Positions 686 to 34,235 of a stretch of DNA of 40,746 bases are shown here, one piece after another. Position 1 is the first letter of the stretch; the number at the start of each line of letters is the position of its first letter. Made by a program: the position numbers and the translations under genes. Where the stretch lies: the NCBI GenBank assembly GCA_017453865.1, contig JAFTEC010000018.1:1-40746 (forward strand). Direction: 5' to 3'. Origin of the DNA: Lachnospiraceae bacterium. GTDB lineage: Bacteria > Bacillota > Clostridia > Lachnospirales > Lachnospiraceae. Under the pieces are notes generated by a model that ran no database searches, had not been told where the DNA came from, and saw only the letters and a list, made by a program, of their open reading frames with translations.

Positions 686-2956
686 TTAAGAGCTGCAGGC
701 TTCCTCCACAAAGGGGATGATATAGTCACGGCGTTCACGAAGATATTTCCGGATACTCTCTATATCTCCGTCAAAATCCCTTATGGTATATCTTTCGCCA
801 AAGTAGCGGCTAAAGTCACTCTCTATGTAGGGCCTTATTTCCGCGGCGTAGCGGTCCAGCTTTTCTATTGCAGACTCCGGCTCAAAGACAGTAGACGCTA
901 TTTCCTTAAATCTTTTAAGGAAGCGCTTCTTAAAGTCGGGATTTTGCATTAGCTTTGAGAAGAGCTCATCCGGACGGTAGTTCTTTGTTCCTTTCAGGGC
1001 CTTACTAATGGTATTTACGCTGACCGCACCGTAGTCGAGATTTGAATTGTTATCAAAGTTTAACCATCTCCAGCGGCCGTCGGCGAAGCTGTTACTTTTA
1101 TCCTTATCCCTTGTACGCCAGAAGGCTACGTTGATATTCGGCCAGTCCATGCCCTCATCTATATAGATCCTTGCGGCATAGAAGTCAATAAGGCTCTCCA
1201 TATCCGCCATTTCCTGAAACCTCTCATAATCGGTGCCGGCAGTAAAATCGGCATTCATTATGAAGTGCCTGAGATCACCGTAGAGCTCGTCATCCTCGGG
1301 GATACCCTTACTAAGGAGGCTGTTTTTCACCATAACCACCTTATCCGGATCAACATCAAAATACCCTCCGATAAAGTCCTCATCCATTTTTTCACTGAAC
1401 CTGTATATTCCCCAGAATTCACCGTCTATAAATAGGGAGGCGGGGGAGGTGAAGGAGAGTGAAGCAAATGAAAGCTCCGATGTGATATCGGAAATAAATG
1501 CATCCCGGACAAGGGAAAGCTCATCCTGTCCGCCCGCAAAGAGGGTAAGTCTTGAATAATCCTTATTAAAAACATCCTTATCTATTACCCGGGAGCCGTA
1601 ATAATTCCTGCCGTAGAGATTCAGGCTTTTTTTCGGGAAATTACAGGTCCTGTGGCCCTTGACCCGTATCCCCAGGGTCCCGGATGAAGAAAGCTTATGC
1701 TCCTTATCAAAGAGAGTAAGAAAAGCCTCCCTTTCCCATGCACTGCCTCTAAATGTATAATTACTCCCGATAAATTCATCCATTTTGACGTCAGCGATCA
1801 TAACACTGCCGTCTGTCGGAATTTCGGGGTTTTCTTCGAGAAAGCGGAGGGCGTTTTCACTTTCCGAAAGCCGTTTCTTAAAGCTTTCAACTCCATTTTT
1901 CCCGATAACATAGATCCCCTTTTCAAAGTCAAATAGGTTTGAAGGGTCGGTTATAAGGGATATCATATCTATGCCTTTGAAGTTAGCTGCCACGGATTCC
2001 GGAAAGAAGGTGCGGCTCACGGTTTCTGATCTGTTCCCATTCTTATCAAAGACCGCAGCCCTTATAACGTTACATTTAAGGACCGGAGATAAGGGAATCG
2101 AAAACTTATAGTTGATATAGGGGAGAAGATCAACGGACACATCACTTAATGCGGAGTAGACATTTTCCTCTGAGCTTCTGTCATAGATCCTTATGGGCTT
2201 TTCGTATTTAAGAGAAGAAGGAGTCGGCTCAGAGCCGTCAAAAGTGTAATAGATATCACCCTCCTCTGAGGAAATCGAAAGGTAAAATTCCGAATCATAT
2301 AAGCCGCTTTCCCTTGAAAACCGAGGTTCATCAAGAGATGGATAGGTAACAGCGGAGCTCTTTGAATTTGATGAAAGCGGCGTGGGAGTACGCCTTAAAA
2401 TATCGCCTGTTCCATCGGGTACTCTTGCCAGAGTGGTATCGTATTTCAAAGGAATAAGTTGAAAGCTGTCAACCGGATACTCATTTTTTGAGGAAAGGTA
2501 GAGGGTCTCATTCTTACTGAGCTTAAAGGAGGTATGGAGACCGTTATCCCTTACAGGGACAGCTTTTCCATTCATTATGAAGCTGTCAAGGGAAAAGCTC
2601 TCATCCTGATCCGGCTCTTTATCTAAAGTACCGTCAAAAAAAACGGTAAGATAGCCATTCGTCGGAACAACAGTTCCTTCGGGGAAGAACCATTTATCCC
2701 GCTTTGAAGAAGAGTCGGAAAGATACCAGCCTGAAATATTTATATCCTTCCCTCCCTTATTGTAGAGCTCCGCCCAGTCCGGATGAGCGCCGTTTTCATC
2801 ATAGAGGCAGGAAAGGTTATATAAACAGACCTCGTTTATCGTTATGTCCTTTATATCCGAAGAACCTGCCGTTGATGCTGCGTAGGCGATGATCGCGGTA
2901 ACCAATGCAAAAAGCAGGCACAAAAACAGTTCAAAATGTCTCTTTATGCTTCTCAT
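686..2956 (-). CDS. Secreted CotH-family protein with lamin-tail and chitobiase C-terminal-like domains
   Basis: The 756-residue protein begins with a basic stretch and a hydrophobic segment (about residues 8-28), a signal peptide or anchor. A lamin-tail-type beta domain follows (about 38-150, with DWAELYN and ISGWYLSD), then a chitobiase/hexosaminidase C-terminal-like domain (about 210-320, with YYTFDGSEPT). A CotH kinase-like domain fills about 380-750 (GIRVKGHRTCNFPKKSL, GIYRFSEKMDEDF). CotH of Bacillus spores is an atypical protein kinase. Here the usual Asp-x-Asp metal motif reads FDNNSN near residue 633, so activity is doubtful. It is probably an extracellular, wall- or glycan-associated protein. 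A promoter-like sequence ends eight bases before the ATG and there is no ribosome binding site. A second CotH protein lies at 30521-32143. Confidence 0.85.
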   Translation of the reverse strand: MRSIKRHFELFLCLLFALVTAIIAYAASTAGSSDIKDITINEVCLYNLSCLYDENGAHPDWAELYNKGGKDINISGWYLSDSSSKRDKWFFPEGTVVPTNGYLTVFFDGTLDKEPDQDESFSLDSFIMNGKAVPVRDNGLHTSFKLSKNETLYLSSKNEYPVDSFQLIPLKYDTTLARVPDGTGDILRRTPTPLSSNSKSSAVTYPSLDEPRFSRESGLYDSEFYLSISSEEGDIYYTFDGSEPTPSSLKYEKPIRIYDRSSEENVYSALSDVSVDLLPYINYKFSIPLSPVLKCNVIRAAVFDKNGNRSETVSRTFFPESVAANFKGIDMISLITDPSNLFDFEKGIYVIGKNGVESFKKRLSESENALRFLEENPEIPTDGSVMIADVKMDEFIGSNYTFRGSAWEREAFLTLFDKEHKLSSSGTLGIRVKGHRTCNFPKKSLNLYGRNYYGSRVIDKDVFNKDYSRLTLFAGGQDELSLVRDAFISDITSELSFASLSFTSPASLFIDGEFWGIYRFSEKMDEDFIGGYFDVDPDKVVMVKNSLLSKGIPEDDELYGDLRHFIMNADFTAGTDYERFQEMADMESLIDFYAARIYIDEGMDWPNINVAFWRTRDKDKSNSFADGRWRWLNFDNNSNLDYGAVSVNTISKALKGTKNYRPDELFSKLMQNPDFKKRFLKRFKEIASTVFEPESAIEKLDRYAAEIRPYIESDFSRYFGERYTIRDFDGDIESIRKYLRERRDYIIPFVEEACSS

Positions 2957-23244: not shown

Positions 23245-23279
23245 TATCTGTTCAGAAGCCAGAGGGTTCTGAACAGATA
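23245..23279. repeat. 13-bp hairpin overlapping the end of the SGNH-GH5 gene
   Basis: TATCTGTTCAGAA (23245-23257) pairs exactly with 23267-23279 around a nine-base loop. It includes the stop codon of the minus-strand gene. On the minus strand the T-run lies before, not after, the stem, so it is not a standard terminator, though it may mark the 3' end of the operon. Confidence 0.6.
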
Positions 23280-25318
23280 AAAAAGCTGCAGAGCTCCGGG
23301 TACAAGGGCTCCCCTGTCGTCCGGTCAAATAAAGCATATTCGGATTCGTCACCGTCATCCCACCAGATACAGGGAATGCTTCTTCCGTTCATGCTTTCCA
23401 AATAATACCTGCACCATTCCCTGCGGTCATTTTCATGCTCTCCTTTGGCAATACAGGCAAATTCCGTGACTATTACAGGAAGTCCGGTTCTTGTCTCAAA
23501 TTCCGTAAGATTGTGTCTAAGATCAGCTATTTCCCTGACATCCTCCGCTCTGTCCATCCTCCAGCTGTTTTTTTCCGTGGTCTGCACAAAATCATAGGGC
23601 AGATATGCATGGACTCCGATGATCAGATGCGTGTCCGAGGGTATCTTTATATCGGACAGGATTTTTTCGCTTGAACCCGTGTGATAGCCTCCGATTATGA
23701 GATAGCGTTCCCCGTTCTTTCCTCCGGAGCTTCTCACCGCATCAATGAAGGAGCGGTTCAGCACGTAAAGGCAGAAGGAGGTGTCCTCATTTCCGTCGCC
23801 CCATTCAATTTCGGTATCATAGAGCCTTGGCTCATTCAGGCCTTCAAAGATGAGCTTCTTATCATAATCCCTGAATTCATATGCGATCTGCTTCCATATA
23901 CGGGACAGTCTGTATGCGTTTTTGTCAAGATCTTCATATCCCGGATACAGGGCTTTATCATGATGCATGTCAAGAATGATATACATTCCTTTTCCGTATG
24001 CATAATGAACTACCTGCTTGACCCTGCCGAGCCAGACCGCACTCAGCTTACCGGCTTCGTCCGTATGTATGTCCCAGGTAACAGGTATCCTTAATAAGGA
24101 GATACCGGATTCCTTAAGTCCGTCAATGTATTTTTCGGTAATGGACGGATTTCCCCAGAAGGTTTCAATATCCAGTTCGTTAAAGTCGGAGCCGTCCGTC
24201 GGATAAGAATCAAGTGTATTCCCGATATTGATACCGTTCGGAAGCTCCTTGACAAATTTCATCGTCTCCTTTTTTTCTTTGGTATCTTTCCCGGGAAGGA
24301 AGGAGAAGGGCATCCATCCCTCCTTGAAGCCGTCAAAATACCCAAGCTCATCCATTTTATCAAAGATAAGCCTTCCGAGGACCTCATAGCCGTCCTTTGT
24401 AAGATGCACCTGATCCGAAAGAAGAGAGGGCGGAACGCTCACGCTGTCCATCGCATTAAGATCCTCCTCCTTATAAAGGAGACCGGCGGAATCCAGGCCA
24501 TGAAAAGCAAGGAAGGAACGGAGACTTATAAAATGCTCTTTATAATGCCTGTACATCATTTGATCATAGCCGTCAAGCCACTCGGCTTTGCCGTTATACA
24601 TCCCCACCACCACATATTTTCCGCCTGCTCCGGCGCTGCGGTATCTGATAACTGCATCCGTCTGTTCGATCAGCTCCTCATAGGATGAGAAGCCGCCGTT
24701 TGTTCCCATGAATATGATCGGGATATGATCAAGACAGAGCCTTGCGGATGCGGGAATAAGCTTACTTCCCTTAGGCACCGAAGAAGGCTCCCCGGGAGCG
24801 GTCCGTCTGAAGGAATATATGCCTTCCTTTGATCCCGGAAATTTATTTTCAAGGGTTCCCTCTATCCCGTTCAAGGTGCAGGAATTAAATCCTGAATCCA
24901 TATACATTAAAGGGACCAGGCGTCTTCCGGTTTTGTCCTCAAGCTCTATCTCCACAGGGGAAGTGTCTTCAGGAAGAAGGACATCCTTTGAAAGAAAAAG
25001 GGGTTCAGCCCCGCTTCTTGCCGTAATGGTTGCGGAATCCTCGCCGGATGCACCGAAATTCACGACATCGGTATTACAGTAATTTTCCTGTATCAGTCTT
25101 TTCAGTGTGTCGGCATAGGGAGCAGGATTACTGTCCGGTATGTATCCTGCCGTAAGCGAATCCCCGAAGCACACGATCCCGGGAAGGAGCTGCCTTTCCC
25201 TATCCTTCTTAAGAAGGTTAAAGACATAGACGCTCCCTGAAACAAGCGCAGCAAGAACAATAAGCACTATGAATAATAAGAGAAAATATAGGTTGACCTG
25301 TCTTTTTCTGTACATCAC
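23252..25318 (-). CDS. Membrane-anchored SGNH esterase-GH5 glucanase fusion
   Basis: The 688-residue protein has one membrane anchor (about 10-34), then an SGNH hydrolase domain and a glycoside hydrolase family 5 domain. SGNH blocks are complete: GDS (Ser54), MGTNGG (Asn207), and DQVHL (Asp302, His305). GH5 spans about 355-680, with the acid/base Glu496 in GLNEP and the nucleophile Glu619 in VTEF; INIGNTLD and LRIPVTWD are typical of cellulases. It should act outside the membrane, removing esters and cutting beta-1,4-glucan, the counterpart of BcsZ/CcsZ in cellulose operons. It overlaps the synthase stop by four bases (GTGATG; the ATG at 25315 is an alternative start). Substrates are inferred from the neighbours. 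Confidence 0.88.
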   Translation of the reverse strand: MMYRKRQVNLYFLLLFIVLIVLAALVSGSVYVFNLLKKDRERQLLPGIVCFGDSLTAGYIPDSNPAPYADTLKRLIQENYCNTDVVNFGASGEDSATITARSGAEPLFLSKDVLLPEDTSPVEIELEDKTGRRLVPLMYMDSGFNSCTLNGIEGTLENKFPGSKEGIYSFRRTAPGEPSSVPKGSKLIPASARLCLDHIPIIFMGTNGGFSSYEELIEQTDAVIRYRSAGAGGKYVVVGMYNGKAEWLDGYDQMMYRHYKEHFISLRSFLAFHGLDSAGLLYKEEDLNAMDSVSVPPSLLSDQVHLTKDGYEVLGRLIFDKMDELGYFDGFKEGWMPFSFLPGKDTKEKKETMKFVKELPNGINIGNTLDSYPTDGSDFNELDIETFWGNPSITEKYIDGLKESGISLLRIPVTWDIHTDEAGKLSAVWLGRVKQVVHYAYGKGMYIILDMHHDKALYPGYEDLDKNAYRLSRIWKQIAYEFRDYDKKLIFEGLNEPRLYDTEIEWGDGNEDTSFCLYVLNRSFIDAVRSSGGKNGERYLIIGGYHTGSSEKILSDIKIPSDTHLIIGVHAYLPYDFVQTTEKNSWRMDRAEDVREIADLRHNLTEFETRTGLPVIVTEFACIAKGEHENDRREWCRYYLESMNGRSIPCIWWDDGDESEYALFDRTTGEPLYPELCSFFICSEPSGF

Positions 25319-27630
25319 ACGAGATCCATTTCATTAAAATAGTTTTTTGCTGCTATTTTCTGCATCATTCTTTCCTGTTTTTCAAGCTCATCCCTTTTTT
25401 CATGGGCTTTTTTCGAAACGGTTACAAGCCATTCCATAAGCCTTAGGTAAAGCGCTCTGTCGGCAACTATATCATAGATATTCAGTACCCTGTAAAGGTG
25501 ATGGTCCTTTCCGATCTCCCTTTCGTACAAAAGCTCAAGGGTCAGGTCTTCAAAGATACTGAGCCTAATCCTCTTTTCGGGATCAGGGATAACAACACTT
25601 AAGAATTCATAATTAAAATCCAGTACATGCATCTTCCTGCCTTTAGAGAAAGAGTCAAGACCGATATCTATTCTCGCAAATTTTCTTTTCTGGTAAAAGG
25701 GGATATCCACTCTTTTTTTGGTATTTATGAGAAGATCGTCAAAGCTTCCGACATCCGCCTTTATCTCGGAGGGGAGCATCGGGATACGGTCATAGAGAAG
25801 CTCAAGATAGGTATCATAGTATCCCATATAATCATTTATCTTTATCGAATAGCCCCAGCCCATCTTCTTTTCGGATACATAAACAACCTCTCCCCTTAAG
25901 GATACGCTGTACATATCGTTACTCACATCCACTGTTACGACATCACCCAGCATATAAGGCTTATTGAGGATAACAGCCATCCCTTCCTCGGACAGGTCCA
26001 TTGTTTTTCCCTGAACGGTTAAGTCCGAATCATGAACCGTGCAGTCTGTCACAATGGGGAATCTTTCAAATTTCCGGTTTGCAGCCCTGCCTGTAGTAAA
26101 AAATACGGACATAACAAGAAGGAAGAGATTATTTAATAGCCAGAAGAGGATCACTATCGGAGAAAAGGAATTGCTCTGAAACATTATAAGAATGCAGCGG
26201 ACTACCCCGATAAGCGACAGTATTATCAGCGTAAGGAAGGGCAGCATATAAATAAATTCCACCTGTCCCCTGCTATCGTCGCTTTTATCCGTGACCTTGA
26301 ATTTATTCAGGGTTATCCCGAAGGACTCCAGTAAAACAGGTATCAGCATATAGGGAAAAAGAATGGTTTCGTATATGCCGGTCCACTTTGAATTACGCAC
26401 ATGCTCACTCAGCATGCTGAGACTGATATTACTGGAGATATACATCGGAAGCCAGAAAATCAGGATCTCGGGGAGGGTACACTTAAAGACCATGAAATTA
26501 AAGGTGCCGTAAAGTATCGGCGACAGGATATAAATGAGTCTTTTTACCGGTGCATACCAATAATAAACAGAAGCCCAATAATTCATTTTCTGGGAAAAGG
26601 ACATTTTCCGGCTCCTGAATATATGCATTTTTCTGCCCGTTGCTATAACGCCTCTCGCCCAGCGGACACGCTGCTGTATCAGATTCGGAAGATCCGTGGG
26701 TGAAAGTCCGCTTGCCAGGGGTCTGCCGAGTCCAAGGGTCACATAACCCGCCTGCTGTATAAGAATACCGGTCGCAAAGTCTTCGGTGATCGCCCCGGTA
26801 TAAAAGCCTCCTATCTCTTCAAGGGCTTCCCTGCTTATTATGGTATTGGAGCCGCCGTAGATCACGCTGTTATTTCTGGTCCTCGCAACCTGAATATCTC
26901 TGTAGAAATAGTCCTGCTCATTCGGGATCCTTCCCTCGGAAAAAAGATTATACTGGAAGAGGTCAGGATTATAAAAGGCCTGTGGTGTCTGGATATAGCC
27001 GAGCTTGATCCTGTCCTGCTCCTTCCTTCCCCTGTTCCTTCTTTCGGCATCCACAATATAAGGCATGGTTTCCATAAGGAAACAGCTCTGAACGATCATG
27101 TCGGCGTCCAGAGTCAAAATGTAGGGGGAGCTGCTGTGCTTAAGAGCGTTATTTAAATTTCCTGCCTTTGCGCCTTTGTTGTCAGGGCGATCCAGATAAT
27201 TCACGCCCATACTTTCGGCAAGGGAACGTACCTCACTTCTCCTGTTATCGTCACAGACATAAATATGTACCTTTGAGGGATCGGGGTAGTTAAGGTGCTT
27301 GCATCCGTTTATGGTCTTATATAGGAGAGACGGCTCCTCCGAATAGGTTGCTATGAAAACATCCACATCCGGATACTCCTCGGGCCGTATGTCTTCAGGC
27401 TTCTTATAGGGGCGGATATTATACATATTTGCATAATGCACAAAAGCCTCCACCATACCGAGAGCCTCAACGAAAAACAGGAAAAAGCCTGCAAGTATGG
27501 AGATCATCCCGTACTCGAAGGGAATAGTGAAGAACAGCCTCCACATGAGATACATCAAGGTGAAGAAGGTGTTGATCACGAACCATATTTTACTTCTTAA
27601 ATCATGTAAAAGGAGCCTTATATTTTTCAC
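25315..27630 (-). CDS. bcsA: Cellulose synthase catalytic subunit, BcsA-type, with PilZ
   Basis: The 771-residue GT2 enzyme polymerises UDP-glucose and threads the glucan through its own membrane helices. Two N-terminal helices are followed by the GT domain with Asp127-Asp128, DAD (175-177), TED (282-284) and Q-x-x-RW at Gln320-Trp324, then about five further helices. A PilZ domain follows with R-x3-R (Arg519, Arg523) and D-x-S-x-x-G (545-550), so it should be activated by cyclic di-GMP. A second stretch (about 648-720) repeats RKFAR but lacks the D-x-S-x-x-G half. No BcsB gene is present, as expected for a single-membrane cell. The GTG start overlaps the previous stop (GTGA) and has AAGGG upstream. 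The product could be another beta-glucan. Confidence 0.88.
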   Translation of the reverse strand: MKNIRLLLHDLRSKIWFVINTFFTLMYLMWRLFFTIPFEYGMISILAGFFLFFVEALGMVEAFVHYANMYNIRPYKKPEDIRPEEYPDVDVFIATYSEEPSLLYKTINGCKHLNYPDPSKVHIYVCDDNRRSEVRSLAESMGVNYLDRPDNKGAKAGNLNNALKHSSSPYILTLDADMIVQSCFLMETMPYIVDAERRNRGRKEQDRIKLGYIQTPQAFYNPDLFQYNLFSEGRIPNEQDYFYRDIQVARTRNNSVIYGGSNTIISREALEEIGGFYTGAITEDFATGILIQQAGYVTLGLGRPLASGLSPTDLPNLIQQRVRWARGVIATGRKMHIFRSRKMSFSQKMNYWASVYYWYAPVKRLIYILSPILYGTFNFMVFKCTLPEILIFWLPMYISSNISLSMLSEHVRNSKWTGIYETILFPYMLIPVLLESFGITLNKFKVTDKSDDSRGQVEFIYMLPFLTLIILSLIGVVRCILIMFQSNSFSPIVILFWLLNNLFLLVMSVFFTTGRAANRKFERFPIVTDCTVHDSDLTVQGKTMDLSEEGMAVILNKPYMLGDVVTVDVSNDMYSVSLRGEVVYVSEKKMGWGYSIKINDYMGYYDTYLELLYDRIPMLPSEIKADVGSFDDLLINTKKRVDIPFYQKRKFARIDIGLDSFSKGRKMHVLDFNYEFLSVVIPDPEKRIRLSIFEDLTLELLYEREIGKDHHLYRVLNIYDIVADRALYLRLMEWLVTVSKKAHEKRDELEKQERMMQKIAAKNYFNEMDLV

Positions 27631-28844
27631 TTTTCACCCTTAAAAAAATTAAATGCGGCGTCCTCAATATTGTAAGGATATACTTCCACAATGATATAAT
27701 CGAATCTGTTTTCTTTTACGTAGCTTTCTATATCAATGGCATCGGATTCCTCAAGGGACCACATGGCATCTATACGGGAGCAAAGGGGCGAGAAAAAGCA
27801 TATAACAGGGGAAAAATAGGAGTCTCTTATCATAAACAGCTTTATTCCGTCAGGCTTGTCTTTATTTATGATGCTCTCATAGATACGGAGCTCATTTAGA
27901 TATAAGGAATACTGGGAACCGCTGTACAGATCATTCCTGTTATCAAGAGCATCCCTGTTGATAAAGGTTTCTTCAAAGCTTCCTGCGAGTCGTATCTTTC
28001 TTCCGTCATTTGTCATGCTTTCCCTGGCAAAGCGGCCCTTGAATTTCGGCCAGTACGCGGTGAAATCATCCACCCCGGAAAAAACCGCTCCGGTCTTCCT
28101 GCCCATCGAACCGAGCATGCCGCCCTTATAGGTAATTTCCTCGTAGCTTTTATTGTGATCCGTATAGTATCCCTCCGGATCCAGAGTAAGACCGTACTCC
28201 TCATTCATTTTGTCCTTAAGAAGCTTTGCGGAATAAAAGGCCGCAGGGACGGTCCAGTGGTGATCCGTCCGGAAAAAGGTGTGAGAGTAGTCAAGCTCGC
28301 TATTGGGAAAGCTGTTTCTTAGGTCAAGGGTGGTGATACCGAACTGATTGGCATAGAAAAGCAATTCGTCAACCACACTGTCCGGGTCATTTGGAGAAAG
28401 ACCGGTGCGGAGACTGACATATTTTTTATTATATTTTGAGGGGGTCACGACCAGCATAACCTTCGTCCCGTATTTTTCCACATAGTCCTGCATCCTCCTT
28501 AATCGAAGGGCATTCTCCCTGTAGTCATCGCTGCGGTTTCTGTAGAAGCTGGAATAATGCAGTGCCCCGGACTCATCCTTTATACTTGTGAAATTATTGA
28601 ATTCCCTTTTATCAAGGAGTACCTGTATGAAGCCGTAGAGCTCAATAAAGTTCATACGGAATAGCATATTTGAATTTATGGAGCTCTCAAGCTTTGCCGT
28701 ATCCGGAATACCGTTATTTAAAGCAACCCTTACATTTGATAAAAGGCCGGCCGGATTATTCATAAGATTGAATCCGGCATAGGTATAGATCATAAGGAGA
28801 AATATTACCGCAAAGAGCTTTTTTCTGAAAAAATAATCCTTCAT
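27627..28844 (-). CDS. DHHW-family AlgJ/DltD-like protein of polysaccharide O-acetylation
   Basis: The 405-residue protein has one N-terminal membrane segment (about 8-27) and an extracellular SGNH-like domain. FFRTDHHWTVPAAF carries the DHHW motif that names the family and corresponds to the Asp-His pair of AlgJ/AlgX; the Ser is probably in FMIRDSYFSP. Such proteins pass acetyl groups from an MBOAT partner to a secreted polysaccharide. The open frame continues 38 codons upstream into the MBOAT gene, but MKDYFFRKKL at 28844, with GAGGGAT upstream, is the likely start, 11 bases after the MBOAT stop. It corresponds in position to CcsI/AlgJ-type proteins of acetylated cellulose or alginate operons. 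Confidence 0.8.
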   Translation of the reverse strand: MKDYFFRKKLFAVIFLLMIYTYAGFNLMNNPAGLLSNVRVALNNGIPDTAKLESSINSNMLFRMNFIELYGFIQVLLDKREFNNFTSIKDESGALHYSSFYRNRSDDYRENALRLRRMQDYVEKYGTKVMLVVTPSKYNKKYVSLRTGLSPNDPDSVVDELLFYANQFGITTLDLRNSFPNSELDYSHTFFRTDHHWTVPAAFYSAKLLKDKMNEEYGLTLDPEGYYTDHNKSYEEITYKGGMLGSMGRKTGAVFSGVDDFTAYWPKFKGRFARESMTNDGRKIRLAGSFEETFINRDALDNRNDLYSGSQYSLYLNELRIYESIINKDKPDGIKLFMIRDSYFSPVICFFSPLCSRIDAMWSLEESDAIDIESYVKENRFDYIIVEVYPYNIEDAAFNFFKGEK

Positions 28845-28855
28845 GTCCTTATCCC

Positions 28856-30289
28856 TCAGAAATTGAAATATATAAAAGGATTGTAGGTTCCGCTTGCAAG
28901 GTAGCTTACGCTTATAATGAAAACAAGGGTCATAAGGAGCGGATAGAGAAAGGACCATACCCTCGCGGCTCCTCTTTCCGGAGCTTTATAGATCCGCTCA
29001 TTAAAATCCCTGACGACAGGCAGGGAGAAGATGATCCCGAGAAGATAGAAGAACCAGTTCTCCCGTAAAAGCATAAGGGCGGTGGAGCTAAATATACCGT
29101 TCCTGTTTAATGCGATCATATTTAAGAACATGATACCCGACTGATAGAGATCATCCGCACGGAAAACCACCCAAAGGGCATTGACTATCAAAAGGGTATA
29201 AAGGTGCTTTACGAACCTGTTCTTAAGCTTTATCGGTATATCAAAAAAGCGTTCGGCAAGAAGAACAACAAAGTACATAAGTCCCCAGAAGATAAAGGTC
29301 CAGTTTGCTCCGTGCCAGATCCCCGTAAGGAGCCAGACTATAAACATATTTCGCACCATGAAATCCTTATTCTTTACACGGCTTCCCCCGAGAGGAAAAT
29401 AAACGTAATCATGAAACCAGTCCGTTAAGGAGATATGCCAGCGCTTCCAGAATTCACTGACGGAGTCCGCAGCGTAGGGGTAATTGAAATTCTCTCCGAA
29501 TTTGAAGCCGAAGATTAAGCCGAGGCCGATTGCCATATCGGAGTATGCGGAGAAATCATAATATATCTGAAGCGAGTAGGAAATACTTCCAAGCCAGGCA
29601 AGGAGTGCCGGAACGGGATAATTATCGGTTCCGATCGCAGACCATCCGAAAATATTGTCTGCTACGGCGGCAAAGGTATTTGATAAAAGCACCTTCTTTC
29701 CGAGTCCTGCCGTAAACCTGCATACTCCGAGGGCGATCTTATTTAAATCCGACCTCCTGTTCCTTATCTGATCCGCCACCGTATTGTACTGGATTATGGG
29801 ACCGGCGATAAGCTGCGGGAAAAAGGAGATATAAAGCCCCACGTAAAAGGGATTTTCGGGCTTTGTGGTACCCCTGTACACATCCACCACATAGGAAAGT
29901 GCCTGAAAGGTGAAAAAAGAGATCCCTACAGGCAGGGTGATATTTACCTCGGGAACGTCTATTTTCCCGGCACTTCCGATTATATCAAGGACAAAGGCGA
30001 GATATTTGAAAACAAACAAAACCAGGAGATTTACGGCGATATCCAGAACCAGAAAGGCTTTTTTCAGGCTTTTATTCCGGGTAAACGCAACAATATAGCC
30101 GAAGACCGAATTAAATATAATGGAAGAGAGCATTATAAGAACATATACCGGCTCTCCCCAGGCGTAAAAGAAAAGGGATGCCACGAGCAGGAGCAGGTTC
30201 TGCAGAAGCCTTGAAAATGAAAATAAATAATACAGCAGGAAAACTGCAGGGAAAAAATAGAATAAAAAAACTATGCTCGAAAATAACAT
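28856..30289 (-). CDS. AlgI-type MBOAT O-acyltransferase
   Basis: The 477-residue protein is a polytopic membrane-bound O-acyltransferase with about ten hydrophobic segments. The family signatures are FWKRWHISLTDWFHDYVYFP and the catalytic histidine in WHGANWTFIFWG. AlgI and DltB relatives move acyl groups, usually acetyl, across the membrane for transfer to a polymer. Its position between the DHHW protein and the cellulose synthase suggests acetylation of the glucan made by that synthase. The ATG at 30289 directly follows the TAG of the small gene upstream. Confidence 0.92.
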   Translation of the reverse strand: MLFSSIVFLFYFFPAVFLLYYLFSFSRLLQNLLLLVASLFFYAWGEPVYVLIMLSSIIFNSVFGYIVAFTRNKSLKKAFLVLDIAVNLLVLFVFKYLAFVLDIIGSAGKIDVPEVNITLPVGISFFTFQALSYVVDVYRGTTKPENPFYVGLYISFFPQLIAGPIIQYNTVADQIRNRRSDLNKIALGVCRFTAGLGKKVLLSNTFAAVADNIFGWSAIGTDNYPVPALLAWLGSISYSLQIYYDFSAYSDMAIGLGLIFGFKFGENFNYPYAADSVSEFWKRWHISLTDWFHDYVYFPLGGSRVKNKDFMVRNMFIVWLLTGIWHGANWTFIFWGLMYFVVLLAERFFDIPIKLKNRFVKHLYTLLIVNALWVVFRADDLYQSGIMFLNMIALNRNGIFSSTALMLLRENWFFYLLGIIFSLPVVRDFNERIYKAPERGAARVWSFLYPLLMTLVFIISVSYLASGTYNPFIYFNF

Positions 30290-30511
30290 CTACTTCTCTT
30301 TATCCCTTCTGAGACGAAAATACAGGAAAGCCGTAAAGCAGAGCAGCAAAACGAAAAGCAGCCTGAATCCCCATATTCCTGCCGTTGTATTTAAAAATTT
30401 CAGGAAATAATCCCTCGGAGGCACATCCTCCTGCCGCAGTATGATCTCCGTAAAAAGGGCTTCAAAAAAAACCGGATTAAAGAACGGAGGCTTGAAAAAA
30501 GGAAAATTCAT
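30290..30511 (-). CDS. Small single-pass membrane protein of the exopolysaccharide operon
   Basis: A 73-residue frame fills the gap between the CotH and MBOAT genes, with nine bases before it and none after it. The N-terminal 45 residues are rich in Phe and Pro (MNFPFFKPPFFNPVFFEALF), followed by one membrane helix (about 48-66) and a positively charged tail RLRRDKEK. It is not recognised. Tight packing and a sensible membrane topology argue that it is real; the ribosome binding site is weak (GAAGAAG). It may be an assembly or linker subunit, comparable only in size with accessory Bcs proteins. Confidence 0.6.
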   Translation of the reverse strand: MNFPFFKPPFFNPVFFEALFTEIILRQEDVPPRDYFLKFLNTTAGIWGFRLLFVLLLCFTAFLYFRLRRDKEK

Positions 30512-30520
30512 CGGGCTTCT

Positions 30521-32143
30521 TCACTTTCTCTGGTTTATGACCAGGGAGGGCACGGCAAAGACCGCAAAGAGGAGTATCAGGAAATATACATTATACCCTC
30601 CGGGTGAGGTATCAAACCGTGTGCTGTCATAAAGCTCCGTAAGACTCTCCTGAATCACAAGGGAGTGCTTATGGAGGTAATTTCTGATATTATATATCTC
30701 CTGGTCATAATCATCATTCATTCTGTCTATCTCTATGCCGTCGATAAGATAGCCCTGAAGATAATAATTTCCCGGAGAGGGTTCGTCATAATGGACGTAA
30801 TCGGCGGCATACCTGTACCATTCCCTTTTCCTTGCGGATCTTAGACAGGCAACCGTCTCATCAATGATATCGTTGATATGTTCTTCATTAAGAGCCGATT
30901 TACGGAGTGTAACGTATCGGTCCTTAAGAATATTTATAAATTCCCTGTCAAGTACGAGGCGGTCGAAAAGAGGCTTGGTATGGAAGGCTATACTGTCCGT
31001 GTCCATTTCCTCAAGGGAATTATTGTTCATGGCCTGGTCAAAATCCCAGACCGGTCCTATACAGAGCTTACTGCCTGAGTCCTTATACATATAAGTGGAA
31101 TGCTCACCGGCGTCATAATTTCCGAAGAATTCGTTTAACAGGAAATAATCCGCAAAGCTCTTTGTATCTATGAATTTCTTGTACAGCCGGTATTCATTCA
31201 GCCTGTCAGAGTAAAGGATACGCTCCGTTATCGAGTAATCCTTCTCTATATATCTGATAAGAGACTCGGTAAGCTTGGTCTTTCCCGGATATTTTATCCC
31301 GATATACTGGTCGGAGAAGCCGTGCAGCCGCCCGTAGGTACTAAGCATAACGTCAAAATCCGTCTGTCTGTCACGCCTTATTATATAGCTCGTATAATCT
31401 GTTTTTTTCCCTGTTTTTTCTATATTAACGCGTTCCGGTCCGGCATCTATGGACTCTGACAGAAGATAAACGCCGTTATACTTTAGACCGCCGTCGCTCT
31501 TCAAAAGTACCTCACAGTAGCGCACATCCGGGGACAGATCATTTCCGCCAACCTCGGAGCATATCCGGTATGCCAGATAATTACGGATAAGGCTCTTGTC
31601 CGCAAGCGAGCCGTTTAAGATCCAGTCATTTCCTTCTCCCATCCCGAGGATGGATGCGTCATTATTTGTCCCGTCAGGCAGGAAGGTCTTTATCTTGTAC
31701 TGGGGCTTATCGAAGGCCATTGAGGTATGTCCGCGTTTTTTTATCTTTATACCGCTTTCATATATAGGAGTATCAAAGGGTGTACTTTCACCATTTTCAT
31801 TATATATTACGGTCATTTTTCCGAAGGTATAGGGCTCAATATCCTTATCCGATATTTCGATCCCGTTATCGGTAAAATACTTGTATTCCGGTAATTCTCC
31901 GTCGATCTCAAGGATCACGATCGGCAGATTCGTATGGAAGCCACGCTTTACGGAAAAATCCGTACCCACATATTTCAGAGGGTTCTCCGCCGAGCTGTCT
32001 TTTTCCAGTGTTTTATAGCTTCCGGGATTCAGTATCCCGTTATCGGTAAAAAAACGGGGAAAGGAAAGTATGAACAAAAGGGCACAGGCAAGGATCCAAA
32101 GGATCAGAAGCAGTATCCTCCTATTGGGACTTCTCCTCCTCAA
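30521..32143 (-). CDS. CotH-family kinase-like membrane protein
   Basis: The 540-residue protein has an N-terminal membrane segment (about 9-28) and a C-terminal one (about 515-535), with a CotH domain between them on the outer face. Motifs include KIKKRGHTSMAFDKPQYKIK, GVYLLSESIDAG and the metal-binding VWDFDQAMNN, where the Asp-x-Asp pair is intact, unlike the protein at 686-2956. CotH proteins phosphorylate protein in Bacillus spores, but those in VTC/DUF4956 clusters have no known substrate. The start is a TTG overlapping the preceding TGA (TTGA), with AGGAGG about ten bases upstream. Confidence 0.87.
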   Translation of the reverse strand: MRRRSPNRRILLLILWILACALLFILSFPRFFTDNGILNPGSYKTLEKDSSAENPLKYVGTDFSVKRGFHTNLPIVILEIDGELPEYKYFTDNGIEISDKDIEPYTFGKMTVIYNENGESTPFDTPIYESGIKIKKRGHTSMAFDKPQYKIKTFLPDGTNNDASILGMGEGNDWILNGSLADKSLIRNYLAYRICSEVGGNDLSPDVRYCEVLLKSDGGLKYNGVYLLSESIDAGPERVNIEKTGKKTDYTSYIIRRDRQTDFDVMLSTYGRLHGFSDQYIGIKYPGKTKLTESLIRYIEKDYSITERILYSDRLNEYRLYKKFIDTKSFADYFLLNEFFGNYDAGEHSTYMYKDSGSKLCIGPVWDFDQAMNNNSLEEMDTDSIAFHTKPLFDRLVLDREFINILKDRYVTLRKSALNEEHINDIIDETVACLRSARKREWYRYAADYVHYDEPSPGNYYLQGYLIDGIEIDRMNDDYDQEIYNIRNYLHKHSLVIQESLTELYDSTRFDTSPGGYNVYFLILLFAVFAVPSLVINQRK

Positions 32144-32691
32144 ATCAGATCATCCTCCTGACGTACCACATTAAAGCTGTGGAGTCCCTGAATCTCTTTA
32201 AGGCTTTTAAGAAGGGCACCGTTTTTATCCTTTTTATCCAGCAGCTTCCCGGAGACCTCAAATATCATGTCCGCACTGCCGGCATCGATCGACTGGTTCT
32301 TTACCTTCAGCTTTTCCTTTCCCTTAAAAAATGTATCTACAGCATTGTCTATCTTGTCCGCATCGGAGAGATCCGCTTTTATGACTAAGAGGACCCTGTC
32401 GTCATTCTTAATAATTCCGAAAAAGATAAGGAAGATAAAGATTATAAAGGAACCGATACCGGCTATTAAATATTCCGAAACGCCGCAGCATATACCCACT
32501 GCTATACACCAGAAGATATAAGCCGTATCCCTCGAGTCCTTGATGGCGGTACGGAAGCGTACTATCGAAAGCGCTCCGACCATGCCGAGGGAGAGGGCGA
32601 TATTGTTTCCTATCACGTTCATAACCAGTGTCGTGATAAGCGTGAGCATTATAAGGGATACATTGAATTTTTTATTATAAACCCCGCTCAC
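32140..32691 (-). CDS. DUF4956 membrane protein, main reading frame (N-terminus out of frame)
   Basis: The 183-residue frame has the DUF4956 core: NVSLIMLTLITTLVM, GNNIALSLGMVGALSIVRFR and a further hydrophobic region, then a soluble alpha-beta C-terminus. DUF4956 proteins regularly accompany VTC-domain and CotH genes; function unknown. This frame begins at a GTG without a good ribosome binding site and lacks the first membrane helix. That helix (AAAIIAIAIYISYRLSHV) is encoded in this frame upstream of the GTG, while the expected start with AAGGAG lies in another frame at 32819. The gene is therefore probably frameshifted by one base near 32735-32750, or the deposited sequence lost a base there. 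Confidence 0.75.
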   Translation of the reverse strand: MSGVYNKKFNVSLIMLTLITTLVMNVIGNNIALSLGMVGALSIVRFRTAIKDSRDTAYIFWCIAVGICCGVSEYLIAGIGSFIIFIFLIFFGIIKNDDRVLLVIKADLSDADKIDNAVDTFFKGKEKLKVKNQSIDAGSADMIFEVSGKLLDKKDKNGALLKSLKEIQGLHSFNVVRQEDDLI

Positions 32692-32729
32692 ATGGGAAAG
32701 CCTGTAGGATATATATATGGCTATTGCGA

Positions 32730-32819
32730 TTATTGCAGCAGCCAGGAATTAATGAGAATATCCGTTAAGGACAGGGAACCCTGGGCATCGATAAGTGAAT
32801 CGTAAAAGTATTGTTTCAT
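32730..32819 (-). pseudogene. N-terminal fragment of the DUF4956 gene, out of frame
   Basis: ATG at 32819, preceded by AAGGAG, opens a 29-codon frame MKQYFYDSLIDAQGS... ending ILINSWLLQ and TAA. It starts 17 bases after the VTC gene stop. Adding one base near 32740 would join it to the DUF4956 frame just before its first membrane helix, giving a protein of about 226 residues, which is closer to the family size. It may instead be a short leader peptide. Confidence 0.5.
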
Positions 32820-32835
32820 AAATTCAGCTCCTTTT

Positions 32836-33525
32836 TTATATCAGACTTGATGATACCAGTCTCGCACGAATGTATTTTGAATTTGAGATCCTGCTTGCTT
32901 CCGCTTTTTCTATCGCGTCCTTGATGAAGGAAAGAAGGAAGGAATCGTACTTTACCTCCATGGTGATCTGCGAGGGCGGCGCCACGGGATACATGGTAAG
33001 ATCCTTATTGAAAAGATCAAGATCTGCCTCCGTAGCCATAAGATCACGGTCAAAGGTAACCCTGATATCGTTTATATCGTAAATAAACGCATATCGCCTG
33101 TATTCCACTATGGTCTTCGGGATATAGGTGTTTTCGGTCATTTCAAAGTAAAGATATTTACCGAGCTCCCCCTTATCACAGAGAACAGAATAATCACGGT
33201 TCATTAAGCATAAAGCCTCCTCCGCGGAAATAACAAGAGAGCGCTTTCTGCAAAGATCATTGAATTTTTCCTTTAACTCAAGCTTTATGATATCGGATCC
33301 GCCGTAAATACGTAAACGGATTTTTTTACGGTTTTCAAGTCCGTTTATCTTTTCCTTAAAGTCCCTGTTATATACGGAATCAAAATAAAGAGAGCGGATA
33401 CTGTATCCGTCGGATTGTGAATTATGGGAATCCGGCTCCATCACGGCGCCGAGCACCCTTTTTAACCTGCTTACCTTACTGTCCTCCAGAATATATTTTA
33501 GCTCCGAACGCTTTACGTCAAGCAC
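32836..33525 (-). CDS. VTC-domain polyphosphate polymerase-like protein
   Basis: The 229-residue protein is a stand-alone VTC domain of the CYTH/triphosphate tunnel fold. Visible tunnel strands are RSLYFDS, KKIRLRIYG, KLELKEK, VEYRRYAF, VTFDRDL and TMEVKYDSF, supplying the basic and acidic residues that bind triphosphate and metal. Yeast Vtc4 makes polyphosphate with this domain, but bacterial stand-alone members are little studied. It starts with GTG overlapping the upstream stop by eight bases, with GGAGGA about eight bases before. The link to the polysaccharide genes downstream is by operon context only. Confidence 0.85.
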   Translation of the reverse strand: MLDVKRSELKYILEDSKVSRLKRVLGAVMEPDSHNSQSDGYSIRSLYFDSVYNRDFKEKINGLENRKKIRLRIYGGSDIIKLELKEKFNDLCRKRSLVISAEEALCLMNRDYSVLCDKGELGKYLYFEMTENTYIPKTIVEYRRYAFIYDINDIRVTFDRDLMATEADLDLFNKDLTMYPVAPPSQITMEVKYDSFLLSFIKDAIEKAEASRISNSKYIRARLVSSSLI

Positions 33526-34138
33526 CTGAACCGTCCTCCGATCCCTTTATTTCCTCAAGGGGCTTCAGCGAACAAAGATCATTGTAGGTATAAAAGATCC
33601 TGCTGCTTTTCCCTGCCCTAAGCTGGCATATCAATCCCGGAATGAAGAGCAGGAAAAAAAATACAGCGGCTAAAAGCTTACTGTCATATATACAGAAGTA
33701 AAGCGTCGTACTTCCGAAAAAAGCCCCGAGAAAAGCGGAAATAAACACAAGGAATATATCCGAAGCGCTAAGGAGTGATAATAATGAAATTACATGGTTA
33801 ATGATCATACTTACGGCATATATCGCAGCAAATCCAGCGAAGATAAAGATAACAAAAAAATAGAGCTGCATAAGCTTATTGGAGGTCAGACGGGAGGTAA
33901 AAAGTATCCCTACATAGCCGCCGGCCATGCCAGAAATAAGAAAAAGGAGGGTACTTAAGGCCCTTCTTCCTACGAAGCATAGGAGCAGAGAAAAAATCAT
34001 AATTAAGAACAGGGAAAGCAATATCATAAGCTCCTTTGAAAAAAGCCCCTCCGACAATCCGTTCTCAAATGAAGGGAGCCTTAGCAAAAAGCTTCCTTTA
34101 AGCTGATAGGATAATTCAGAAAACACAGCCGCTGTCAA
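33518..34138 (-). CDS. Unrecognised polytopic membrane protein, first gene of the exopolysaccharide operon
   Basis: The protein has about five hydrophobic segments, including a Gly-rich one (LISGMAGGYVGILF) and a Phe-rich one near the end, then a soluble tail of about 35 residues. There is a faint resemblance to DUF4203/TMEM198-like proteins, not enough to name it. Start choice: the frame is open from an ATG at 34180 that has no ribosome binding site, whereas TTG at 34138 follows a strong GGGAGGGGGG run (34145-34154); the TTG is preferred, giving 206 residues. It overlaps the VTC gene by eight bases and lies just behind the operon promoter. Confidence 0.65.
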   Translation of the reverse strand: MTAAVFSELSYQLKGSFLLRLPSFENGLSEGLFSKELMILLSLFLIMIFSLLLCFVGRRALSTLLFLISGMAGGYVGILFTSRLTSNKLMQLYFFVIFIFAGFAAIYAVSMIINHVISLLSLLSASDIFLVFISAFLGAFFGSTTLYFCIYDSKLLAAVFFFLLFIPGLICQLRAGKSSRIFYTYNDLCSLKPLEEIKGSEDGSGA

Positions 34139-34206: not shown

Positions 34207-34235
34207 ATAATAACACTTTCCGTTTTTTAAGTCAA
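34207..34235 (-). promoter_or_regulatory. Promoter of the exopolysaccharide operon
   Basis: On the minus strand TTGACT (34235-34230), a 17-bp spacer and TATTAT (34212-34207) each match five of six consensus bases. A perfect TATAAT lies further down at 34197-34192 but has no -35 box at the right distance; it could be an alternative start. Confidence 0.6.

What the first reader, a model, noticed from the sequence alone, without database searches (positions are those of the whole stretch)
23252..34138. Nine-gene operon joining acetylated-cellulose genes to a CotH/VTC/DUF4956 module
Seen: nine minus-strand genes with overlaps or gaps of at most 17 bases, one good promoter at the front and no internal gap. 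Known: BcsA + GH5 + AlgI/AlgJ-like sets make (acetylated) cellulose in Pseudomonas and in clostridia; VTC + DUF4956 + CotH genes recur together with no assigned function. Inferred: the second module serves the polymer, for example by supplying or sensing polyphosphate, or by phosphorylating a surface protein or the glycan through CotH. Two unrecognised membrane proteins complete the set. I do not know of this combined layout being characterised.
Basis: partly seen in the sequence, partly recalled or inferred. Interest (0 to 1): 0.75.

Follow-up and report, generated by a model that had tools for sequence, protein, structure and literature searches.

The report
Sugar-polymer operon with built-in kinase module
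This gut bacterium carries one nine-gene set, kept together in many related bacteria, that probably makes an acetylated cellulose-like surface sugar and replaces the usual export-helper protein with a kinase-like protein, together with two phosphate-linked partner genes.

Summary
Nine minus-strand genes (34138-23252) lie with gaps of at most 16 nt. The DUF4956 gene is frameshifted near its start in this assembly but intact in a 98%-identical relative.

The two "halves" are one recurring operon. Of 79 named loci found through CotH, 68 carry VTC, DUF4956, CotH and a BcsA-type synthase on one strand, from Lachnospiraceae to Clostridium, Peptostreptococcaceae and Enterococcus. In evenly drawn genomes it is one of several kinds (7 of 42 synthase loci).

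New points. CotH here has a second, C-terminal membrane helix (72 of 72 synthase-linked copies, 1 of 9 others). It was never found with CcsB, the two-helix partner of the published clostridial synthase, so it probably fills the BcsB/CcsB slot while keeping kinase residues. The MBOAT carries the acetyl-shuttle motif (60 of 64). DUF4956 resembles MgtC. The first membrane protein is fused to the synthase in one relative. CotH/VTC/DUF4956 were already reported beside Gram-positive pel operons (PMC7112168): a portable exopolysaccharide module.

What VTC/DUF4956/CotH do chemically remains inference.

The parts
33518..34138 (-). mem1: 206-aa, about 6-helix membrane protein, first gene; longer members in relatives carry an extra N-terminal part, pilin-D1-like in one
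   Evidence: 29% identity (E 2e-14) to the N-terminal part of a mem1-BcsA fusion protein in L134; PF16555 in that fusion
32836..33525 (-). VTC-domain (triphosphate-tunnel) protein, no membrane helix, 229 aa
   Evidence: PF09359 E 3.4e-35; matches yeast Vtc4 catalytic domain; tunnel residues invariant in 43 rows
32140..32819 (-). DUF4956 membrane protein (MgtC-like); reading frame broken near its start in this assembly, open ORF 32691-32140
   Evidence: PF16316 E 7.2e-15, MgtC below cut-off; intact in L092; model and MgtC C-terminal-domain match made with L092
30521..32143 (-). CotH-family kinase-like ectoprotein with one membrane helix at each end, 540 aa
   Evidence: PF08757 E 2.6e-46; helices from residues 6 and 513 by hydropathy; Asp positions invariant in 62 rows
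30290..30511 (-). 73-aa one-helix microprotein, conserved between CotH and MBOAT
   Evidence: similar ORFs in 32 of 34 CotH-MBOAT gaps longer than 100 nt (counted by eye)
28856..30289 (-). MBOAT O-acyltransferase (AlgI/DltB/CcsH-like) ending in the acyl-shuttle motif FIYFNF
   Evidence: PF03062 E 4e-32; motif FxYxxF at the C-terminus in 60 of 64
27627..28844 (-). AlgJ/AlgX/DHHW-type SGNH acetyltransferase (CcsI-like)
   Evidence: PF16822 E 4e-14, DHHW just below cut-off
25315..27630 (-). BcsA-like glucan synthase, GT2 + PilZ, 771 aa
   Evidence: PF13641, PF07238; TIGR03030 376 bits, below its 699-bit cut-off; TED, QxxRW and PilZ motifs in 68 of 68 named homologues of 700 aa or more
23252..25318 (-). 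secreted/anchored fusion of a GDSL-type esterase domain and a GH5 endoglucanase, 688 aa
   Evidence: PF00150 E 5.3e-54, PF13472 34.2 bits over a 32.9 cut-off
34207..34235 (-). promoter-like site TTGACT-17-TATTAT
   Evidence: consensus match only, not above chance frequency
23245..23279 (-). hairpin (16-nt arms, 3-nt loop) at the end of the last gene, possible terminator

Best explanation
It is one co-inherited operon for an O-acetylated, cellulose-like beta-glucan in single-membrane bacteria. BcsA polymerises and extrudes the chain, probably under c-di-GMP control (PilZ). MBOAT + SGNH acetylate it by an acyl-tyrosine shuttle. GH5 (here with an added GDSL esterase) trims and releases it. CotH, anchored at both ends, stands beside the synthase exit in the place that CcsB takes in the ccsZABHI operon and BcsB in Gram-negatives, and it keeps a kinase active site. 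VTC and the MgtC-like DUF4956 form its cytosolic/membrane supply or control unit: most likely they couple phosphate/ATP status, or a phosphoryl donor such as polyphosphate, to CotH and the synthase. Shown: gene content, conservation, no co-occurrence of CotH and CcsB, topology by hydropathy, motifs. Inferred: physical contact with BcsA, catalysis by CotH, the role of VTC/DUF4956, the identity of the glucan.
For: 68 of 79 named CotH loci carry VTC+DUF4956+CotH+BcsA on one strand, with short gaps (VTC-DUF4956 80 of 80 and DUF4956-CotH 77 of 77 pairs at most 150 nt). C-terminal helix on CotH: 72 of 72 copies with a synthase of at least 600 aa within 7 kb, 1 of 9 at VTC-DUF4956 loci without one. 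In distinct loci with BcsA+MBOAT+AlgJ: CotH alone 62, CcsB alone 4, neither 1, both 0. A CcsB profile finds nothing in 18 of 18 CotH-type genomes, nor a weak hit in the 79 named loci. Kinase Asp/Lys positions invariant in 62 CotH rows, VTC tunnel residues in 43 rows. VTC genes of synthase loci need 3 label changes on a 98-row tree, shuffled mean 32.8. mem1 is fused to BcsA in L134. c-di-GMP-I riboswitch ahead of the VTC gene in Acetobacterium dehalogenans. Acyl-shuttle motif in 60 of 64 MBOATs, mechanism shown for PatAB in PMC12148441 (passages).
Against: Named loci were ranked by similarity to CotH from synthase loci (best 80 of 217 relatives), so 68 of 79 overstates the coupling; in evenly drawn genomes only 7 of 42 fetched synthase loci have CotH+VTC+DUF4956 and 29 have neither CotH nor CcsB. 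CotH and CcsB are not homologous (HHalign probability 0.9%), so the shared slot is analogy. The CcsB profile rests on 5 sequences and may miss distant CcsB. One acetylation-type locus (L060) has neither partner. One non-synthase CotH (L084) also has a C-terminal helix. CotH/VTC/DUF4956 also sit beside pel genes; the one such CotH checked (L086) lacks the helix, so part of the module's role is not specific to BcsA. The riboswitch was found in 1 of 44 sources scanned, not in the window. I found no biochemical evidence for a CotH of this kind.
Confidence: 0.55

Rival explanations
1. Regulatory reading: CotH is a protein kinase that tunes the synthase or matrix proteins by phosphorylation, and VTC/DUF4956 report phosphate/ATP status (MgtC-like). 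CotH is not a structural partner of the synthase. PMC7112168 suggests kinase regulation for pel loci.
Against: Does not explain why CotH in synthase loci, and hardly elsewhere, has a second membrane helix, nor why it and CcsB were not found together. No ATP is expected outside a single-membrane cell (general knowledge). PilZ already offers c-di-GMP control.
Confidence: 0.25
2. Independent passengers: the VTC/DUF4956/CotH set and the polymer genes share a promoter and c-di-GMP control but act on different surface targets.
For: VTC-DUF4956 stands away from such synthases in most family genomes, often with other secreted proteins (CotH 6, Cthe_2159 5 of 20 next genes scanned); VTC is found in 112 of 150 genomes, BcsA-like synthases in 17 of 150.
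Against: Conserved order and spacing across families, a nearly unmixed VTC lineage, the mem1-BcsA fusion, no CotH together with CcsB.
Confidence: 0.12
3. Same machine, different product: the synthase makes a (1,3;1,4)-beta-glucan or another glucan, not cellulose.
For: RiGT2 of Romboutsia ilealis, a PilZ-containing BcsA-like synthase, makes (1,3;1,4)-beta-glucan in yeast (PMC10374906, passages); CBM11, the fold proposed for CcsB, binds mixed-linkage glucan (PMC7710045 section 12). The window BcsA scores 376 bits against the 699-bit cut-off of the cellulose-synthase equivalog.
Against: No sequence test here separates the products; GH5 and acetylation genes fit either.
Confidence: 0.3

Closest known systems
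Clostridial cellulose synthase operon ccsZABHI (PMC7710045; passages incl. abstract, and part 1 of 2 of section 12 seen)
   Same: GT2+PilZ synthase, GH5, MBOAT, DHHW/SGNH protein; no BcsB or BcsC
   Different: No CcsB match in the window genome; CotH with two membrane helices, VTC, DUF4956, mem1 and a microprotein instead. Clostridium vincentii, listed there as a ccsA bearer, has one synthase match, in a CotH-type locus, and no CcsB match.
Accessory set CotH / poly-phosphate polymerase / DUF4956 / DUF4832 of Gram-positive pel operons (PMC7112168; passages and section 6 seen)
   Same: CotH, VTC-type polymerase and DUF4956 contiguous with a synthase-dependent exopolysaccharide operon; CotH proposed there to regulate
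   Different: Here the polymer genes are BcsA/MBOAT/SGNH/GH5, not pel; no PelG match in the window genome; no DUF4832 among the nine; CotH has an added C-terminal helix
Gram-negative Bcs/Wss acetylated cellulose systems
   Same: BcsA with PilZ, endoglucanase, AlgI/AlgJ-type acetylation
   Different: No BcsB, BcsC or GH8 family hit among the nine genes; single-membrane host
Eukaryotic VTC polyphosphate polymerase-translocase (PMC9911596: start of abstract in a search listing)
   Same: Catalytic tunnel domain aligns with Vtc4 and conserved tunnel residues are kept
   Different: 229 aa with no membrane helix and no SPX hit; DUF4956 could supply the membrane part (inference)
MgtC family
   Same: DUF4956 has weak MgtC sequence hits and a C-terminal domain of the same fold
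   Different: The two scores seen are below the MgtC cut-off; a strongly conserved motif of its own

Membership tests
ccsZABHI clostridial cellulose synthase | BcsA-like GT2 + PilZ synthase | tested here: met
ccsZABHI clostridial cellulose synthase | GH5 glycosidase (CcsZ) | tested here: met
   PF00150 E 5.3e-54
ccsZABHI clostridial cellulose synthase | MBOAT (CcsH) and DHHW protein (CcsI) | tested here: met
   PF03062 and PF16822 over cut-off; DHHW at 23.7 bits, cut-off 25
ccsZABHI clostridial cellulose synthase | CcsB, two-helix CBM11-like partner, always with ccsA | tested here: not met
   profile A6 (5 sequences) finds no CcsB in the window genome, which is 87.5% complete; none of the nine genes matches
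UDP-forming cellulose synthase equivalog (TIGR03030) | score over the curated cut-off | tested here: not met
   376 bits against 699.1
CotH kinase family | PF08757 over cut-off and conserved Asp pair 23 residues apart | tested here: met
   D344 and D367 invariant in 62 rows and aligned, in a weak stretch, with solved CotH 5jd9; that this pair is catalytic in Bacillus CotH is recalled
CotH kinase family | phosphorylates a protein | not testable with these tools
   needs biochemistry
VTC polyphosphate polymerase | triphosphate-tunnel catalytic residues | tested here: met
   R70, R72, E83, K85, K94, R144, R155, E190, K192, S216, K217 invariant in 43 rows; the first seven lie in the stretch aligned to Vtc4; their roles in Vtc4 are recalled
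VTC polyphosphate polymerase | makes polyphosphate from ATP | not testable with these tools
   no test of a bacterial VTC noticed in the listings
MgtC | PF02308 over its cut-off | tested here: not met
   24.3 bits window, 26 bits L092, cut-off 31.4; scores of the other 34 matching members were not shown
MgtC | membrane part plus ferredoxin/ACT-like C-terminal domain | tested here: inconclusive
MBOAT-SGNH acyltransferase pair (PatAB type) | C-terminal FxYxxF acyl shuttle on the MBOAT | tested here: met
   FIYFNF in the window; 60 of 64 named homologues
Gram-positive pel operon | PelG | tested here: not met
   no PelG match in G000

The most novel reading that the evidence does not exclude
A vectorial phosphate-modification machine: VTC makes polyphosphate (or a related donor) on the inner face, DUF4956 helps it across the membrane, and the two-helix CotH, sitting at the synthase exit where ATP is lacking, uses it to phosphorylate the nascent beta-glucan, giving an acetylated, phosphorylated cellulose in Gram-positive bacteria. 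The same module would decorate Pel in streptococci and clostridia.
Probability: 0.12. Interest if true: 0.9.

Novelty: new variant of a known kind. Interest (0 to 1): 0.64.

Why it matters
Gram-positive glucan synthases lack BcsB, and what replaces it is open. The data point to two alternative two-helix partners, CcsB and a kinase-family protein, in otherwise similar operons. Together with the pel association this makes CotH/VTC/DUF4956 a shared module of synthase-made exopolysaccharides across Bacillota, and it turns three families of unclear role into genes with a testable phenotype (glucan output, acetyl and phosphate content). Named species that carry the operon, such as Butyrivibrio hungatei, Acetobacterium dehalogenans and Clostridium vincentii, could be used for it.

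Tried and rejected
Rejected: that every Bacillota BcsA-like synthase has a two-helix ectoprotein next door. In the third class of synthase loci (L063, L066, L178, L179, L185, L190, L191 of the 13 loci printed) the upstream protein's helices are not at both ends (one, in L179, read by eye as a GT2 plus a GtrA-like membrane part), and six of these seven have a polytopic protein downstream (L066 ends at its contig's edge).

Rejected: homology of CotH and CcsB (HHalign probability 0.9%). Rejected: VTC as the only polyphosphate source, since PPK1 is in the window genome and in 129 of 150 family genomes. Rejected: the small protein as a DltX-type shuttle, because the shuttle motif sits on the MBOAT itself.

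My first motif patterns were too strict for CotH (57 of 80) and wrong for the BcsA DxD (0 of 68); one search has the corrected counts (CotH WD[FYL][DN] 80 of 80 and [YTF]DxG 78 of 80; BcsA DAD 65 of 68). One search counted four loci twice in the CotH/CcsB table (66 CotH; L052, L057, L171 and L173 are also L109, L156, L099 and L119); one search gives 62. CotH copies left out of the helix table: 10 of the 82 named copies had no synthase of 600 aa or more within 7 kb of held sequence. Seven of them have the helix (L095, L106, L137 and L160, whose contigs end within 3 kb; L093, L103 and L122, beside cut or short BcsA pieces) and three do not (first copy of L145, L167, L170).

Led nowhere: the Rfam scan found the c-di-GMP-I riboswitch in 1 of 44 sources (window plus 43 of the 79 named loci). 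PDB by sequence has no DUF4956 relative at E<=1. The CotH structure job was never accepted, nor was the plain Foldseek job; the DUF4956 model's membrane part was barely tested by the fold comparison. Papers on VTC in bacteria: no useful hit noticed.
Full report
OBSERVATION. Boundaries: mem1 34138-33518, VTC 33525-32836, DUF4956 32819-32140, CotH 32143-30521, microprotein 30511-30290, MBOAT 30289-28856, SGNH 28844-27627, BcsA 27630-25315, GDSL-GH5 25318-23252. Gaps are at most 16 nt. Pfam confirms VTC, DUF4956, CotH, MBOAT, ALGX, GT2+PilZ and GH5, plus a GDSL domain just over cut-off in front of the GH5. The DUF4956 frame is broken close to its start in this assembly. A second assembly of nearly the same organism (L092, 98.0% over 11,402 aligned positions) has the same nine genes with an intact 226-aa DUF4956, so the break is a local event or an assembly error. 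Promoter- and terminator-like sites are not more frequent than in shuffles; the front promoter is plausible only.

CONSERVATION. A genome-contig scan with three CotH sequences from synthase loci (A1) gave 79 named loci, the best 80 of 217 relatives. Gene maps (phmmer E<=1e-4) show CotH in 79, DUF4956 in 74, VTC in 73, BcsA in 73, AlgJ-like in 65, MBOAT in 64, GH5 in 44, mem1 in 37, a metallo-beta-lactamase-fold protein in 19, CcsB in none (a CcsB profile at E<=0.001 also finds none). Many loci are cut by contig ends. 68 of 79 hold VTC, DUF4956, CotH and BcsA on one strand. Spacing is operon-like: VTC-DUF4956 80 of 80 and DUF4956-CotH 77 of 77 pairs at most 150 nt apart, AlgJ-BcsA 42 of 42. Hosts include Butyrivibrio hungatei, Oribacterium, Blautia schinkii, Acetobacterium dehalogenans, Clostridium vincentii, C. 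lacusfryxellense, Proteocatella sphenisci, Asaccharospora irregularis and an Enterococcus (titles). A smaller form, VTC-DUF4956-CotH-BcsA-GH5 without acetylation genes, occurs in 8 loci.

UNBIASED VIEW. The scan was ranked by CotH similarity and so favours this layout. In 150 evenly drawn family genomes VTC occurs in 112, DUF4956 in 108, BcsA-like synthases in 17; VTC lies within 10 kb of the synthase in 4 of 19 synthase matches (G000, G086, G100, G107; read from the tables). Over 42 synthase loci fetched from the family and order draws (17 and 25; the window itself not counted), 7 have CotH+VTC+DUF4956, 5 CcsB, 1 a CotH only, 29 neither. Five of the 7 are loci that the named scan found too. 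A same-genus genome (G079) has VTC but no such synthase. So the operon is one of several kinds, patchily distributed.

COTH IN THE CCSB SLOT. In ccsZABHI the partner of the synthase is CcsB, an ectoprotein with a helix near each end, said to occur always with ccsA (PMC7710045, section 12 part 1). CotH in the window has the same topology by hydropathy (helices from residues 6 and 513 of 540). The C-terminal helix is present in 72 of 72 named CotH copies with a synthase of at least 600 aa within 7 kb. Ten other named copies, without such a synthase in the held stretch, were left out: 7 with the helix (4 at contig ends, 3 beside cut or short BcsA pieces) and 3 without it. In 9 CotH copies at VTC-DUF4956 loci without such a synthase the helix is present in 1 (L084) (Fisher 2.8e-10, rows not independent). 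Those nine are the CotH found among 23 VTC loci that I chose for fetching (3, 20); six are confirmed by Pfam, three by my own profile; one (L087) has a shorter 529-aa BcsA-like protein nearby. In distinct loci with BcsA, MBOAT and AlgJ, 62 have CotH without CcsB, 4 CcsB without CotH, 1 neither (L060), none both (Fisher 6.5e-6; 60 of the 62 come from the CotH-ranked scan). A CcsB profile searched genome-wide found CcsB in the 5 genomes it was built from and in 0 of 18 CotH-type genomes, nor in G127; distant CcsB could escape it. Clostridium vincentii, named as a ccsA bearer in that paper, has a single synthase match at E<=1e-50, in a CotH-type locus; I could not see what its figure shows as ccsB there. 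On a synthase tree of 79 rows the partner label changes 5 times in all; CcsB-type synthases L054 and L055 branch next to a 41-row clade of 36 CotH-type and 5 other rows (quick method, midpoint root). CotH and CcsB are not homologous. The simplest reading is exchange of one kind of partner for another.

ACTIVE SITES. In 62 aligned CotH proteins (window plus 61 of 77 named candidates) K146, R187, N337, E338, D344, D367 and D369 are invariant; D344/D367 align, in a weak stretch, with the Asp pair of the solved Bacillus CotH (5jd9), which I recall to be catalytic. In 43 VTC proteins (window plus 42 of 68) the tunnel residues are invariant and the profile matches yeast Vtc4 (E 1.5e-7). BcsA keeps TED, QxxRW and the PilZ motif in 68 of 68. 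The MBOAT ends in FIYFNF; FxYxxF is C-terminal in 60 of 64, the motif whose Tyr is auto-acetylated in PatA (PMC12148441, passages). This supports O-acetylation of the polymer.

REGULATION AND LINEAGE. A c-di-GMP-I riboswitch ends 292 nt ahead of the VTC ORF in A. dehalogenans (L094), the only one in 44 sources scanned. VTC genes of synthase loci (51 rows, thinned) against others (47 rows) need only 3 label changes on a 98-row tree (shuffled mean 32.8; quick method, many branches weak), so this VTC has probably travelled with the synthase for long.

LITERATURE. CotH, a poly-phosphate polymerase, DUF4956 and DUF4832 are reported contiguous with pelDEADAFG in streptococci and clostridia, with kinase regulation suggested (PMC7112168, passages and section 6). 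In my 150 genomes 10 of 31 PelG matches have a listed VTC or DUF4956 within 4.4 kb (by eye; a lower bound, as two lists are cut). So the module is shared by two synthase-dependent polymers. I found no paper joining it to BcsA-type synthases: searches DUF4956+VTC (0), CotH+cellulose synthase (1 paper, another context), DUF4956 alone (3 papers, of which I read into one), also the listings. Only open-licence PMC text was searched.

MECHANISM. Most likely: an acetylated beta-glucan machine, probably under c-di-GMP control, in which CotH is the extracytoplasmic partner of the synthase and VTC/DUF4956 feed or gate it. Contact, catalysis and phosphate flow are inference. PPK1 is also present in the genome, which argues for a dedicated rather than a housekeeping role of VTC. 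In the bolder reading CotH phosphorylates the emerging glucan with a donor supplied by VTC/DUF4956.

Noticed in passing
window 686-2956, minus strand: A second CotH-family protein in the window (756 aa; PF08757 E 1.8e-32 with a lamin-tail domain and chitobiase-type C-terminal repeats), about 20 kb from the operon.
   Followed up: partly
G000:C10:28467-30353 (L058): The same genome holds a second, orphan BcsA-like synthase (ORF of 1094 aa) with neither CotH nor CcsB nearby.
   Followed up: partly
G000:C46:6736-7900 (L069): A second VTC-DUF4956 pair in the same genome, with no synthase in the 18 kb held.
   Followed up: partly
L133, Clostridium vincentii: Listed in PMC7710045 among ccsA bearers, for which ccsB is said always to be present, but the only synthase match here lies in a CotH/VTC/DUF4956 locus and no CcsB match was found.
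   Followed up: yes
window 30511-30290 and gaps between CotH and MBOAT in named loci: Microprotein family without a Pfam match over cut-off in the window copy (mostly 52-106 aa, one helix, segment like YFL..L..P...W.IR).
   Followed up: partly
L094:5848-7920: VTC with a long, by eye coiled-coil-like, N-terminal extension (690 aa) behind a c-di-GMP-I riboswitch; two DUF4956 copies flank a mem1 in this locus.
   Followed up: no
L064, L065, L193, L194, L087, L145: A second synthase type (about 470-580 aa) with GH5 and a very large surface protein, or with a one-helix CotH plus VTC/DUF4956 (L087, first cluster of L145).
   Followed up: no
L076, L079, L088, L089, L091: Outside synthase loci VTC-DUF4956 is often followed by a Cthe_2159 carbohydrate-binding protein (5 of 20 next genes; CotH in 6 of 20).
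   Followed up: partly
L053:9562-11177: CotH split into two ORFs in G100, a frame break in one relative.
   Followed up: no
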